From: an uncultured Caryophanales bacterium
Lineage (GTDB): Bacteria > Bacillota_I > Bacilli_A > RFN20 > CAG-826
Assembly (NCBI GenBank): GCA_937873795.1
Contig: CALMWE010000303.1
Coordinates: forward strand, 1-41,440
DNA length: 41,440 nucleotides
Direction of reading: 5' to 3'
Positions 2 to 27,480 of the stretch are shown in pieces. Within the stretch, counting starts at the first letter, position 1; every line of letters begins with the position of its first letter. The notes beneath the pieces are model-generated. The model was given only the letters and a program-made list of their open reading frames with translations. It had not been told where the DNA came from and searched no databases. Position numbers and translations under genes: made by a program.

Positions 2-673
2 ACGATGATGTACTACTGCCATTCCCGGTATTATGTCCCTGAGTGGTGCCGATGGTTGAACGCCGATAGCCCCAAGTATCTCACAGTTGATTCACCTGAA
101 GGAATAAACCTTTTTTCGTATTGTTGGAATAATCCAATAATGAAGGCAGATATGACTGGAAAGAATCCCGAATGGTGGAATCCCTCAACTTGGGATTGGG
201 CAAAAATTGGAATGATAGCCGCTTCTTCACTTGAAATCATTGGTGGCGTTGTCCTAATAGCTATCGGTGTTGGTGGGCCTATAGGAATGACACTGATTGG
301 AATGGGAACCGGTTCATTAATTAACGGATTTATGAATGAAAGGTCTGGAGGGACATTCGTTGCTGGTTGGGTAGGAGGGCAAATTAGTGGCGCACTGGCT
401 GGGTTTGTCCCAGTTGTTGGAGCCACTTTGGGTGGTTTTATCGGCTCAGTCACCACCGATTTTATTGATAAAGGTTGGAATGGCATAAACTGGAAAAAGG
501 CTAGTTGGTGTGCCGTATTTGCATTTGCAACAGATATACTTCCTGGAGTTGCTATGAAAGCTATGGGGGAAAGTTTATTTAAGTCAGTTACTTTGCAACT
601 GCTTCTATCATATCGAGGTGCATTTGTGGGTGCGATAATAGGAACGATAGGTTCGTTTTATAAAAACGAATAG
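2..673 (+). CDS. Rhs repeat-associated core domain protein, C-terminal fragment (5' end outside window)
   Basis: YYCHSRYYVPEWCRWLNADSPKYL..DSPEGINLFSYCWNNPI..ADMTG matches the Rhs core signature (YYx.RYY.P..GRF...D....NLY.Y..NNP....D.TG); frame is open to the window edge; followed by a Gly-rich hydrophobic tip. Confidence 0.85.
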   Translation, partial: TMMYYCHSRYYVPEWCRWLNADSPKYLTVDSPEGINLFSYCWNNPIMKADMTGKNPEWWNPSTWDWAKIGMIAASSLEIIGGVVLIAIGVGGPIGMTLIGMGTGSLINGFMNERSGGTFVAGWVGGQISGALAGFVPVVGATLGGFIGSVTTDFIDKGWNGINWKKASWCAVFAFATDILPGVAMKAMGESLFKSVTLQLLLSYRGAFVGAIIGTIGSFYKNE

Positions 674-682
674 GAGTTTGTT

Positions 683-1132
683 ATGAAGAATGGAAAAAAG
701 ATGATCAAATGGTATAAAAACATTGGCATTACGCTTTTAATTCATCTCGTTGTTCTTATATTCGATCTTTCCTACCTTTTCTACGGTAAATTTGAAAGCC
801 ATTATCTGGTTCCGTTTTTAGCATTACTGTTGGTCATAATTTTTTCATTCATATTTTCTTTGGTCACTTGGAATTCCGCAGTTTACATTGATAAAAACAA
901 GTTTTGGACTAAGAATAAAGGCAAAATTACGGAATGGAAATTTGAACAGATTATTCAATGCAGGGTATCGAAACGTTGGTATGGAAGACCCCATTTTTTC
1001 AAAATTGAAATAACTTCTAGCGCGAATCCAAATCATCTTGTTTTTGAATATAGTGCCTTTAGAGAAAGAATGATTCTTAATCTTGTGAAAGGCACTCAAG
1101 CAGAAAAAGTCTTTAGCGATGCTTTCAAGTGA
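683..1132 (+). CDS. Small membrane protein with two predicted TM segments, candidate Rhs immunity protein
   Basis: Starts 9 nt after the Rhs stop; two hydrophobic stretches (ITLLIHLVVLIFDLSYLFY, LVPFLALLLVIIFSFIFSLV) then a soluble C-terminal region; AT-rich. Confidence 0.6.
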   Translation: MKNGKKMIKWYKNIGITLLIHLVVLIFDLSYLFYGKFESHYLVPFLALLLVIIFSFIFSLVTWNSAVYIDKNKFWTKNKGKITEWKFEQIIQCRVSKRWYGRPHFFKIEITSSANPNHLVFEYSAFRERMILNLVKGTQAEKVFSDAFK

Positions 1133-1374: not shown

Positions 1375-1571
1375 GACAAAGAAGCACTAATCGTTGACGT
1401 GTTTTATAGAAAGTCGCGGATGTGATGCAAAGCGATAAACACAAAACGAATCTCAGCTTTACGGTTTGTTCCGCAGTCCCGCGTTAAAGGCGTTGAGCGT
1501 ACATCATGGGATGTAAATTAAGGTGGTACCGCGCGCAAGCGTCCTTACAGAGGGCGTTTTTATTTTTTTAG
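1375..1571 (+). promoter_or_regulatory. T-box riboswitch (leuS leader)
   Basis: AAGGTGGTACCGCG at 1520-1533 followed by terminator GCGTCCTTacagAGGGCGTTTTT; candidate CTC specifier in AACGAATCTCAGC; directly upstream of leuS. Confidence 0.9.
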
Positions 1572-1582
1572 GAGGAAAACTT

Positions 1583-6590: not shown

Positions 6591-7946
6591 ATGAAAATCA
6601 ACTACTCGAAAATCACCGAAGGCAACTACGAAAGAGCTAAGGCCGAACTCTCAAAATGGGTTCAAATCAATTCCATTCATGACGATAAGACCGTGGCTCC
6701 CGGAAAACCGTTCGGAGAAGGCGTCTATCAAGCACTCCGCTTTATCGGCCACCTCGCCGAAAGCGAAGGTTTTAAAGTCGATTATTGCGATGGCTATGCC
6801 ACCGAAATCAGTTATGGCGAAGGACCCATTATCGGGATTTATTCGCACTGCGACGTCGTACCCGTGTCCGGAGAATGGAAACATTCACCGTTCAGCGGAA
6901 TCATCGAAGGCGATCAAATGTTTGGTCGCGGTACCAGCGATGACAAAGGTCCCGGCCTCGCCGCGTTCTTTGCCCTCAAAGCTTTGAAAGACCAAGGCCT
7001 CATCAAGGGCTTTCAAGTCCGTCATGTCGTCGGCGGAAACGAAGAAAAAGGTTCCCGTTGCCTCGATTACTATTTCCACCATTTGGGCCGTCCAAATCCC
7101 AAATACGGATTCACTCCCGATGCCGATTTCCCTTTAATCTACGGTGAAAAAGGCATTTCCAACTACCAAACCCGCTTACAATCCAAACTCGGTCCGGTGC
7201 TCTCGATTGAAGCCGGTGTGGTGGCAAACTCCGTCATCGACCTCGCCAAAGCCACCCTTTCTGAAAAAGGAACACTTGAAGAAGTCCTAAAGAAGTATGG
7301 CTTTGTTTACACTCTTGAAAAAGAAAAAGACCACTATGTGGTGACCCTCAAAGGCAAAGCCGCTCACGGTTCGATTCCCGAATTCGGGATCAACGCCGGG
7401 GTTCAACTCATCAAAGCCTTAGGCGAAGCGTTCGACCTAGCCCCTTTAACCACCCTCGCCAATCTTTATGCTGATCCCAGCGGCAAGTCCCTCAACGAAT
7501 TCTATGAATCCAAATTACTACACGCCACGACCTATAACGTCGGCTTGATTTCTTACGATGGAAAAGAATTCTCACTCATTTGCAACTTCCGTTATCCCGA
7601 AACCGTCAATCCTTTGGATGTCATCGCCCGTATCGGCGATAAATCTCCCGGTGAGACGCGCGTTTTATCGACTTCCCGATCGCTTTTGATGGATCCGGAA
7701 AGCCCAATGATCAAAACCTTGTTGGGTGTTTATCAACAAGAAACCGGCGATACGACTACGCCAATCATGGCCATCGGTGGAGGCACCTACGCCAAGGAAG
7801 CCCAAAACACCGTGGCTTTCGGCAGCAAATTTCCCGATAAGAATGACCATATCCACGAAGCCAACGAAAAAATCGATCTCGAGGACTTCAAAAAGAGCAT
7901 GGCTATCTACGCTCACGCCATCCACGCTTTGGGAAATCTCCAATGA
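6591..7946 (+). CDS. pepV: M20 family dipeptidase, PepV-like
   Basis: GIYSHCDVVPVSGEWKHSPF, GRGTSDDKGP, GGNEEKGSRCLDYY, YGFTPDADFPLIYGEKG. Confidence 0.9.
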   Translation: MKINYSKITEGNYERAKAELSKWVQINSIHDDKTVAPGKPFGEGVYQALRFIGHLAESEGFKVDYCDGYATEISYGEGPIIGIYSHCDVVPVSGEWKHSPFSGIIEGDQMFGRGTSDDKGPGLAAFFALKALKDQGLIKGFQVRHVVGGNEEKGSRCLDYYFHHLGRPNPKYGFTPDADFPLIYGEKGISNYQTRLQSKLGPVLSIEAGVVANSVIDLAKATLSEKGTLEEVLKKYGFVYTLEKEKDHYVVTLKGKAAHGSIPEFGINAGVQLIKALGEAFDLAPLTTLANLYADPSGKSLNEFYESKLLHATTYNVGLISYDGKEFSLICNFRYPETVNPLDVIARIGDKSPGETRVLSTSRSLLMDPESPMIKTLLGVYQQETGDTTTPIMAIGGGTYAKEAQNTVAFGSKFPDKNDHIHEANEKIDLEDFKKSMAIYAHAIHALGNLQ

Positions 7947-8617
7947 GAATGAAACATAAGCCTTGGGCGGAACCCTATTTGGCCGCACATCCCGACGTTG
8001 TCTTGACCCCTTCCGAAATCACTTCCGATCGCGGCAAGACCTTTCTGCATTTGACGCCGCTCTATTTGGAAATCGGCACGGGCAAAGGCGACTTCATCGT
8101 TGGCATGGCCCAAAAGTATCCCGATGCGTATTTCCTTGGTATTGAAAAATCTTCAACCGCCCTTGCCATCACGGCCAAAAAAGTGGTGGAAGCCAAGTTA
8201 ACCAATGTCATGCTGCTCAATGACGACGCCCTCTTGATTTTGGATTTATTCCCCGAGCAAACGATCCAAGCCATCTTCCTCAACTTCTCCGACCCGTGGC
8301 CCAAGAAAAAACATTCCAAACGCCGCTTAACCAACGAAAAAGTTTTAGGAACCTATTACCGGCTGCTGAAAAAGCTCGGGAAAATCTATTTGAAAGCTGC
8401 CAATCCTGGCGTATTCGAATTCAGTTATGAAAATTTTTCCAACATGGCCTACGATATCTTGGAATACACGCATGATTACGATGGCCTTGATGCCTTTGAT
8501 TATCCCACCGAATATGAAACCAAATTCCGCGCGCAACATATTGCCATCAATCGCTTGATTGTCCAAAAAGGAGAACACACCCATGAAACTAACCCCACGT
8601 CAACGGAAGCTGTTTAA
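7943..8617 (+). CDS. trmB: tRNA (guanine-N7-)-methyltransferase
   Basis: LEIGTGKGDFIVGMA, NFSDPWPKKKHSKRRL motif; ATGA overlap with pepV. Confidence 0.95.
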   Translation: MRMKHKPWAEPYLAAHPDVVLTPSEITSDRGKTFLHLTPLYLEIGTGKGDFIVGMAQKYPDAYFLGIEKSSTALAITAKKVVEAKLTNVMLLNDDALLILDLFPEQTIQAIFLNFSDPWPKKKHSKRRLTNEKVLGTYYRLLKKLGKIYLKAANPGVFEFSYENFSNMAYDILEYTHDYDGLDAFDYPTEYETKFRAQHIAINRLIVQKGEHTHETNPTSTEAV

Positions 8618-9671
8618 GACTCTGAGCGAACTCAACGGCGTCTCCGGCCAAGAAAACGAGATCGCCGCGTATTTACGTGCCGCTTATCGCGATCTTGGTT
8701 ATCCCATCGTCACCGATAATTTAGGCAGTATTTTTGCTTATAAGAAAAGCAATCTTGCCAACGCTCCCAAAGTGATGGTCGTGGGCCATATGGATGAAGT
8801 CGGTTTCATCGTTCTCAGCCTCGAGAAAAACGGTATGCTCAAAGGCCACCCCATCGGTGGTTTGAATAACCAAACCTTGACCGCTCAACGCGTATGCTTA
8901 AAAACCCGATCCGGGGAGTATCTCCACGGCGCTATTGGCGCGGTTCCGCCCCATTTATTAACGGAAGCCGAACGTGAAAAACCCACCGAAATCAAAAACA
9001 TGCTCTTTGATTTTGGTTTCCGCTCCCGTGAAGAAGCCGAAAAAGCCGGCGTCTATGTCGGCGCCATGATGGTGGTCGAAGGACCTTTCCAAGAAATCAA
9101 TGGCGGCGAACGCATTTTGGGCAAAGCCTTCGATGACCGTTACGGCATTATCCTCGGTCTCGAAATCCTCATCGACTTCAAAGACATTGACCTTCCGTTT
9201 GACCTTTATGTCGGCGGTTCCGTCCAAGAAGAAGTCGGCTGCCGCGGTGCGATTACCTCCAGTTATTTCATCAACCCCGATATGGCGATTGTCCTTGACT
9301 GCTCACCCTCGCGTGACAGCAGCGGCGACAAGAAAGAATTCGGCCAATTGGGCGAAGGCGTCTTGCTCCGTTACATCGACGGCACGATGATTGCCCGTCC
9401 CGAACTTTTAGCCTTCCAACGCCTCTGTGCCGAAAAGGCCCATGTCAAATGCCAATACTTTGATTCTCCGGGTGGCACCGATGCGGGACAAATCCATAAG
9501 AACCGCGAAGGTGTTTTGACCCTCACGCATTGCCTCTGCGCACGCAGCATCCACACCAATTCCACGATCCTAGATGTGGAGGATTACAACGCGGCCAAAA
9601 AGTCGCTTGTCTACATGCTCAAACATTTGGATGAAAAGAAAATCGCCGAATTACGAGGAGACGTTCAATGA
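8583..9671 (+). CDS. M42 family aminopeptidase (glutamyl aminopeptidase / YsdC-type)
   Basis: GHMDEVGFIV, KAFDDRYG, GSVQEEVGCRGA, GGTDAG motifs; start trimmed to MKLTPRQRK. Confidence 0.9.
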   Translation: MKLTPRQRKLFKTLSELNGVSGQENEIAAYLRAAYRDLGYPIVTDNLGSIFAYKKSNLANAPKVMVVGHMDEVGFIVLSLEKNGMLKGHPIGGLNNQTLTAQRVCLKTRSGEYLHGAIGAVPPHLLTEAEREKPTEIKNMLFDFGFRSREEAEKAGVYVGAMMVVEGPFQEINGGERILGKAFDDRYGIILGLEILIDFKDIDLPFDLYVGGSVQEEVGCRGAITSSYFINPDMAIVLDCSPSRDSSGDKKEFGQLGEGVLLRYIDGTMIARPELLAFQRLCAEKAHVKCQYFDSPGGTDAGQIHKNREGVLTLTHCLCARSIHTNSTILDVEDYNAAKKSLVYMLKHLDEKKIAELRGDVQ

Positions 9672-12530: not shown

Positions 12531-12579
12531 TCGCTTCTTACATTTGTAAAAAAAGGTTTTGTTTGATACACTAGTAATG

Positions 12580-12778
12580 CTTTGAACAAGTCAAGTACCC
12601 TAAATCCAGAGAGTTATGGTTTGGTGCGACATAACACACGGGGAAATACCCTTGGGAGCATCTTCTTAATAGAAGCGGGCTGCGCCGTTATCCGCTCTCG
12701 AGTGGCTTTGAAAATTTCAAGGCAACTAAGGTGGTACCACGTTACATGAGCGTCCTTAGCCAAGGGCGCTTTTTATTT
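12580..12778 (+). promoter_or_regulatory. T-box riboswitch (tyrS leader)
   Basis: AAGGTGGTACCACG at 12728-12741 then terminator GCGTCCTTagccAAGGGCGCTTTTT; candidate TAC specifier in GGGGAAATACCC. Confidence 0.9.
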
Positions 12779-27249: not shown

Positions 27250-27480
27250 AATAAAAAAGCGTCCCATATAAGGACGCTTTTGCGTGGTACCACCTTAATT
27301 TGCATTCAATGAATGCACACTTGATACTCGTAACGTGAGCGGCGTCCTATTTATCATAGGAAGCTCGGAAGTGGTTCCGTTATCTCGTCTTTAGAAACCT
27401 TTCACCCATGGTTCCCTCTCTAGAAAATCCGTGATAACGACATGTCTTCTTCGAAGCTATAACTCATTCTAGTCAGTTTA
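27250..27480 (-). promoter_or_regulatory. T-box riboswitch (thrS leader)
   Basis: Minus-strand AAGGTGGTACCACG (27283-27296) followed by AAGCGTCCTTatatGGGACGCTTTTTT; candidate ACC specifier in ATAACGGAACCACTTCCG. Confidence 0.9.

What the first reader, a model, noticed from the sequence alone, without database searches (positions are those of the whole stretch)
2..1132. Rhs C-terminus with Gly-rich hydrophobic tip and adjacent membrane protein: possible pore-forming toxin/immunity pair
After the Rhs core, the remaining ~170 aa are dominated by glycine-rich hydrophobic segments (IIGGVVLIAIGVGGPIGMTLIGMGTGSLI, GWVGGQISGALAGFVPVVGATLGGFIGSV, LLLSYRGAFVGAIIGTIGSF) with no recognisable nuclease or deaminase motif. 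The next gene, 9 nt downstream with its SD overlapping the Rhs stop, encodes a two-TM protein, as expected for immunity to a membrane-acting toxin. The immunity candidate and following spacer are visibly AT-richer than the housekeeping genes, consistent with horizontal acquisition.
Basis: partly seen in the sequence, partly recalled or inferred. Interest (0 to 1): 0.6.

Follow-up and report, generated by a model that had tools for sequence, protein, structure and literature searches.

The report
Rhs membrane-toxin tip and immunity gene
The end of a large bacterial "Rhs" weapon protein carries a greasy, glycine-rich tip that probably punches ion leaks in rival cells' membranes, and the next gene probably makes a small membrane protein that protects the producer; the pair recurs across several bacterial families and looks like a new variety of a known kind of weapon.

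Summary
The contig begins inside an Rhs gene. After the Rhs core, 170 hydrophobic, glycine-rich residues end the protein, and a 149-aa two-TM gene follows after 9 nt.

Relatives show that the tip is bipartite. The N half (tip aa 1-80) is a shared pre-toxin or entry module, also found in front of a GIY-YIG nuclease and two other soluble tips with soluble partners. The C half (aa 81-170) is the swappable part: in ten intact homologues nothing longer follows it, and its best-conserved feature is a GxxxGxxxG glycine zipper. All ten are followed by a two-TM protein; the window's partner has a C-terminal domain predicted to be PH-like.

In 68 Rhs ends of the same taxonomic family, hydrophobic tips go with membrane partners (30/40 versus 5/28, p=5e-6; about 8e-4 after collapsing related tips). 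Decayed cassettes, an intact partner kept behind a truncated tip, and orphan partner genes fit exchangeable toxin/immunity modules.

Best reading: a glycine-zipper membrane-depolarising toxin with membrane immunity, working like Tse5/Tsi5, EsxX or CDI ionophores. No function was tested, the tip fold could not be predicted and the delivery route is unknown.

The parts
2..160 (+). C-terminal end of the Rhs repeat-associated core (contig begins inside the gene)
   Evidence: TIGR03696 match aa 2-53, 41.7 bits, above cut-off; place 5-160 in the genome scan
161..400 (+). N half of the tip (tip aa 1-80): glycine-rich hydrophobic pre-toxin / entry module shared with other toxins
   Evidence: HMM of this half also matches tips L051 (8e-14), L098 (3e-9) and weakly L049 (0.0098, GIY-YIG nuclease), which continue for 121-139 aa into other, more charged sequence
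401..670 (+). C half of the tip (tip aa 81-170): proposed membrane-acting toxin domain, GRAVY 0.61, no known domain
   Evidence: Conserved family of ten intact members in several taxonomic families, always the C-terminal end of the protein
419..445 (+). Glycine zipper GATLGGFIG (tip G87-x3-G91-x3-G95), the best-conserved element of the C half
   Evidence: 9/10, 10/10, 10/10 identical in the ten-member alignment
671..676 (+). Rhs stop codon TAG overlapping the SD (GGAG) of the next gene
   Evidence: read directly from the sequence
683..1132 (+). Proposed immunity gene: 149-aa protein, two-TM helical hairpin plus C-terminal beta-rich PH-like domain
   Evidence: AlphaFold2 model pLDDT 73: helices 2-32, 39-64, six strands 67-124, helix 127-135; top PDB fold matches mostly PH domains at weak E-values; homologues behind the family tips

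Best explanation
The region is the 3' end of an Rhs polymorphic-toxin gene with its cognate immunity gene. The Rhs shell carries a C-terminal cargo in two parts. The first is a glycine-rich hydrophobic module (tip aa 1-80), shared with soluble-toxin tips, that probably helps the cargo enter the target membrane (inferred). The second is a terminal ~90-aa helical domain with a conserved GxxxGxxxG zipper that probably inserts in the target's cytoplasmic membrane, oligomerises and leaks ions, dissipating the membrane potential (inferred by analogy). The 149-aa partner sits in the same membrane through a two-helix hairpin and blocks insertion or assembly of the cognate tip, while its PH-like domain may supply recognition specificity (inferred). 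Shown by sequence comparison: the domain boundary, the conserved zipper, the constant pairing, cassette displacement and orphan partners. Not shown: toxicity, protection, pore formation and delivery.
For: (1) Ten intact homologous tips in several taxonomic families plus an uncultured Firmicutes bin each have a two-TM partner directly downstream. (2) Partners of type A and B tips are homologous by profile comparison (68-96% probability; TM-only and soluble-partner controls at most 4%). (3) Among 68 Rhs 3' ends in the family, a partner with at least 2 TM goes with hydrophobic tips in 30/40 versus 5/28 others (p=5e-6); with one tip per cluster the median p is 8e-4, worst 7e-3. (4) The same N half stands before soluble tips with soluble partners, including one with a GIY-YIG nuclease domain. 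(5) The C half ends all ten proteins; G87/G91/G95 are its most conserved residues. (6) L110 holds the last ~57 codons of a tip plus an intact partner, 681 nt 97.65% identical to L006 in another taxonomic family. (7) Partner genes without an adjacent homologous tip occur in seven genomes, as described for orphan exiCD (PMC12744356). (8) Precedents: Tse5/Tsi5, Rhs pore-former with two-TM immunity (PMC9637101); EsxX/TelE glycine-zipper toxins (PMC12744356, PMC10434224); CDI ionophores with an entry domain plus glycine-zipper domain (PMC11630599).
Against: No functional data. The AlphaFold2 model of the tip is uninformative (pLDDT 42, two sequences). Hydrophobicity is partly shared with pre-toxin modules of soluble toxins, so greasiness alone does not prove a membrane target; the association weakens when only the last 70 residues are used (per-cluster median p=0.016, worst 0.07). 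The PH-like assignment rests on fold matches with E above 0.001. Glycine zippers can also serve translocation rather than killing (Tde1, PMC10240207). The N-terminus of this Rhs gene is missing from the window.
Confidence: 0.66

Rival explanations
1. Toxin/immunity pair acting at the membrane, but not by forming a pore: the tip inserts and inhibits a specific membrane protein (for example a secretion, cell-wall or respiratory complex) or perturbs lipids, and the partner shields that target or sequesters the tip.
For: All genomic evidence (pairing, cassette exchange, membrane partner) is equally compatible; the PH-like domain of the partner might bind a target or lipid.
Against: The only strongly conserved C-half feature is a glycine zipper, which in characterised toxins goes with channel formation or depolarisation (PMC12744356, PMC10434224, PMC11630599).
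Confidence: 0.17
2. The whole 170-aa tip is only a pre-toxin / translocation module whose toxin has been lost; the downstream gene is an unrelated or orphan immunity gene.
For: The N half is indeed shared with a GIY-YIG nuclease tip and two other soluble tips; a glycine zipper drives translocation in Tde1 (PMC10240207); the ends of Rhs genes do decay (L110, L113).
Against: The C half ends the protein in all ten homologues, is conserved, and always travels with two-TM partners rather than with soluble ones.
Confidence: 0.1
3. The hydrophobic tip is a membrane anchor or assembly element of the producer's own Rhs surface structure and the partner is an accessory membrane protein, with no toxic role.
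For: Rhs delivery in this group is unknown; full-length relatives show no recognised export or spike domain.
Against: Tips are swapped with nuclease tips on the same core, and partners persist as orphans and behind truncated tips, a pattern of immunity and not of assembly.
Confidence: 0.05

Closest known systems
Tse5 / Tsi5 (Pseudomonas aeruginosa Rhs effector, PMC9637101)
   Same: Rhs protein with a ~150-170 aa C-terminal tip without enzyme motif; immunity is a small protein with two predicted TM segments encoded next door
   Different: Tse5 is a T6SS effector with a PAAR-like N-terminus and a DPXGL-(18)-DPXGL autoprotease motif; the window has DSPEGI...DMTGK instead, full-length relatives show no PAAR match, and the partner here carries an extra PH-like domain. 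Sequence similarity to Tse5 was not measured directly
EsxX / ExiABCD and TelE / TipE (T7SS LXG glycine-zipper toxins, PMC12744356, PMC10434224)
   Same: C-terminal glycine zipper, Gram-positive producers; for EsxX also orphan membrane immunity genes in non-producers
   Different: LXG carrier instead of Rhs; immunity is soluble DUF5085 (TipE, ExiB) plus six-TM proteins (ExiC, ExiD); here one two-TM + PH-like protein without DUF5085
CDI ionophore toxins (CdiA-CT EC93 family, PMC11630599)
   Same: Two-part CT: entry domain followed by a helical membrane domain whose only shared element is GxxxGxxxG; polymorphic cognate immunity
   Different: CdiA carrier in Gram-negative bacteria; sequence similarity was not measured directly
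Tde1 N-terminal glycine zipper (Agrobacterium, PMC10240207)
   Same: Glycine-zipper module in front of a nuclease that permeabilises the target membrane for entry: model for the N half here
   Different: Lies at the N-terminus of a T6SS effector, not after an Rhs core
Tox-WTIP (the pore-forming toxin domain listed by Zhang et al. 2012, PMC3482391)
   Same: Membrane-helix toxin carried by polymorphic toxins including RHS proteins
   Different: Defined by RxxR and Wx[ST]IP motifs, neither of which is seen in this tip

Membership tests
Rhs / YD-repeat polymorphic toxin | Rhs repeat-associated core just before a variable C-terminal tip | tested here: met
   TIGR03696 41.7 bits, above cut-off; tips in the same taxonomic family vary widely
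Rhs / YD-repeat polymorphic toxin | Immunity gene directly downstream, exchanged together with the tip | tested here: met
   Two-TM partner behind all ten homologous tips, different partners behind other tips, displaced cassette in L110; protection itself not tested
Rhs / YD-repeat polymorphic toxin | Full-length protein with YD repeats and an export/delivery signal | tested here: inconclusive
   Window starts inside the gene; full-length relatives (1572-1883 aa) match RHS_repeat, with no export domain in Pfam
Tse5-type Rhs pore-forming effector | Non-enzymatic tip with a two-TM immunity protein | tested here: met
   No toxin domain found; two helices predicted in the partner
Tse5-type Rhs pore-forming effector | DPXGL-(18)-DPXGL autoprotease motif at the core end | tested here: not met
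   Sequence reads DSPEGI...DMTGK
Tse5-type Rhs pore-forming effector | PAAR-like N-terminus, T6SS delivery | tested here: inconclusive
   N-terminus outside the contig; relatives lack a PAAR match
Tse5-type Rhs pore-forming effector | Ion-conducting pores in lipid bilayers | not testable with these tools
   needs electrophysiology
Glycine-zipper depolarising toxins (TelE/EsxX, CDI ionophores) | Conserved GxxxGxxxG in the toxin domain | tested here: met
   G87/G91/G95 conserved 9/10, 10/10, 10/10
Glycine-zipper depolarising toxins (TelE/EsxX, CDI ionophores) | LXG carrier with DUF5085 immunity (TelE/EsxX) | tested here: not met
   Rhs carrier; partner matches no DUF5085 in Pfam
Glycine-zipper depolarising toxins (TelE/EsxX, CDI ionophores) | Membrane depolarisation | not testable with these tools
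   needs a dye assay
PH-domain fold (partner C-terminal domain) | Beta barrel followed by a C-terminal helix, structural match to PH domains | tested here: inconclusive
   Strand/helix order fits; top PDB matches are mostly PH domains (Spt16D/Pob3N, Sin1, SSRP1, Rtt106) but best E 1.8e-3 and TM-scores 0.3-0.4; SIN1_PH in Pfam below cut-off

The most novel reading that the evidence does not exclude
Rhs proteins of a large group of uncultured, small-genome Firmicutes carry a common stock of membrane-depolarising tips, of which this glycine-zipper family is one. The group neutralises them with an undescribed class of immunity protein, a two-TM hairpin carrying a PH-like domain, which also spreads as orphan immunity. 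The shared N half is a general entry module on which nuclease and pore-forming cargos are interchanged.
Probability: 0.4. Interest if true: 0.62.

Novelty: new variant of a known kind. Interest (0 to 1): 0.46.

Why it matters
Membrane-depolarising Rhs tips are characterised in Gram-negative T6SS systems (Tse5); a recurrent, exchangeable family in uncultured Firmicutes with a distinct immunity architecture would extend the principle. The natural swap of nuclease and membrane-toxin C halves on one N-terminal module makes it directly testable whether glycine-rich pre-toxin modules are general entry domains, and gives a family of about ten cognate pairs for mapping specificity.

Tried and rejected
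Looked for a known domain in tip or partner: Pfam, NCBIfam, PADLOC, PHROGs, PDB sequences - nothing above cut-off except the Rhs core; the weak NheB hit to the tip (E 0.007, 15.5 bits against a cut-off of 500) was rejected as hydrophobic-helix similarity. Searched plasmids, phages and viral contigs for the tip: none. T7SS EssC in the own genome: only a sub-cut-off ATPase match, no evidence for a T7SS. dN/dS of the partner between L006, L110 and L125: about 0.6-1.0, too close to neutral to argue for selection. Rejected 'truncated linker' for the whole tip; kept it for the N half only.

Full report
OBSERVATION. The window is the 5' end of contig C303 of a 1.54-Mb, 344-contig genome bin. Frame 2 is open from the first base to TAG 671-673. 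Its first 53 aa match the Rhs core (TIGR03696, 41.7 bits, above cut-off). The next ORF, 683-1132, starts after 9 nt with an SD (GGAG) that overlaps the stop. G+C drops to 0.33-0.35 around it, against 0.47-0.51 in leuS. Four overlapping GxxxGxxxG motifs in the tip exceed shuffles (p=0.015).

RELATIVES. The tip recurs at 55% identity in G217 and 42% in G014 of the same taxonomic family, and at 40% in an uncultured Firmicutes contig (L004). It also recurs in a longer form ('type B', with a ~30-aa insert) in G178, G091 and G141. A profile of the C half found further intact copies in G268, G226 and G453 of other families and decayed copies in G228 and G411. All ten intact copies are followed within a few bases by a gene for a ~130-175 aa protein with two hydrophobic helices. 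Partners of types A and B are homologous by profile comparison (68-96% probability), while unrelated TM-only and soluble partners used as controls score at most 4%. The partners of L109 and L114 share the layout but were not part of that profile test.

DOMAIN BOUNDARY. Splitting the ten-member tip alignment at window tip aa 80 separates two behaviours. The N-half profile also matches three tips of genome G080 (E 8e-14, 3e-9, 0.0098) that continue for 121-139 aa into other sequence; one of these carries a GIY-YIG nuclease (PF01541, 2.3e-7, above cut-off). The genes behind those three tips have no TM segment. The N half is therefore a shared pre-toxin or entry module. The C half ends the protein in all ten homologues, and its only residues conserved in at least nine of ten are G87, G91, G95 (a glycine zipper) and D103. 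Caveat: one soluble-toxin relative (L051) has a partial GxxxG at the corresponding place, so the zipper could still belong functionally to the entry module.

ASSOCIATION TEST. A scan for the Rhs core over 224 genomes of the family gave 86 places. The 3' ends were fetched; 68 had a complete tip of at least 100 aa and a close downstream ORF. Partners with at least two TM segments follow 30 of 40 tips whose last 100 aa have GRAVY of at least 0, and 5 of 28 of the others (Fisher p=5e-6). With one representative per tip cluster (46 clusters) the median p is 8e-4 and the worst 7e-3. Using only the last 70 aa the median is 0.016 and the worst 0.07. TM calls are simple Kyte-Doolittle counts and some chosen ORFs may be spurious, which would dilute the signal. 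Several sequence-unrelated hydrophobic tip families carry such partners, so the case in hand is one of a common class.

CASSETTE HISTORY. In L110 (family f2) only the last ~57 codons of a tip and an intact partner remain, behind other membrane-protein genes; this 681-nt block is 97.65% identical to L006 of family f1, a recent transfer. L113 is a frame-broken tip + partner copy. A partner profile found six partners behind their tips and seven more (E below 1e-8) not directly behind a homologous tip: G020, G127, G128, G193, G005, G021 and G187. Two of these genomes, G020 and G193, were not among those with an Rhs core match. This is what immunity genes do; orphan exiCD genes are the published parallel (PMC12744356). 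dN/dS of three partner copies is near neutral and was not used.

PARTNER STRUCTURE. AlphaFold2 (two sequences) gives pLDDT 73 with two long helices (2-32, 39-64), six strands (67-124) and a helix (127-135). The best PDB fold matches are mostly PH domains (Spt16D/Pob3N, Sin1, SSRP1, Rtt106), but E-values exceed 0.001 and TM-scores are 0.3-0.4. 'Two-TM hairpin plus PH-like domain' is a working description. The tip model is all-helical with pLDDT 42 and carries no weight.

MECHANISM. The best-supported model is an Rhs-carried, two-part cargo: an entry module, then a glycine-zipper helical domain that depolarises the target membrane. The adjacent membrane protein blocks the cognate tip. The precedents are Tse5/Tsi5 (PMC9637101), EsxX and TelE (PMC12744356, PMC10434224) and the two-domain CDI ionophores (PMC11630599). 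Pore formation, toxicity, protection and delivery are all inferred. Full-length relatives (1572-1883 aa) have RHS repeats but no recognised export or spike domain, and no T7SS EssC above cut-off was found in the own genome.

NOVELTY. Rhs pore-formers and glycine-zipper toxins are known kinds. This family, its module exchange with nuclease cargos and the PH-like immunity architecture were not found in the libraries and papers searched. I class it as a new variant of a known kind.

Noticed in passing
L101 (own genome, contig C83) and L076 (G021): A second hydrophobic Rhs tip type in the same genome (last ~190 aa, MPEWAYWLIGG...) with a 138-aa partner with three predicted TM segments overlapping its end; the same tip and partner type occurs in G021, where an orphan partner of the window's family follows.
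   Followed up: partly
L003 / L100 (own genome, end of contig C314): A third Rhs 3' end, interrupted by a frame change inside the core and followed by a different, less hydrophobic tip; the Rhs genes of this bin lie at or near contig ends, probably because the repeats break assembly.
   Followed up: no
L015 (reverse complement 7031-9142): Behind the type B Rhs gene of G091 lies an orphan Rhs 3' cassette: short Rhs core fragment, another hydrophobic tip ORF of 149 aa and a 186-aa membrane protein with a soluble domain, a typical silent Rhs cassette.
   Followed up: partly
L049 1354-1920 (-), genome G080: Rhs tip with a GIY-YIG nuclease domain behind a hydrophobic pre-toxin; G080 has eight Rhs core matches in a 1-Mb incomplete bin, an unusual load.
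   Followed up: partly
window 1388-1572: Apparent T-box leader (GGTGGTACCGCG and terminator 1537-1559) upstream of leuS that does not reach Rfam's gathering score, whereas two other T-boxes in the window (12573-12760 + and 27267-27463 -) do.
   Followed up: no
census loci L018-L101: Several sequence clusters of hydrophobic Rhs tips in this taxonomic family have membrane partners, a number of them with a two-TM + beta-rich C-terminal layout without detectable homology to the window's partner.
   Followed up: partly
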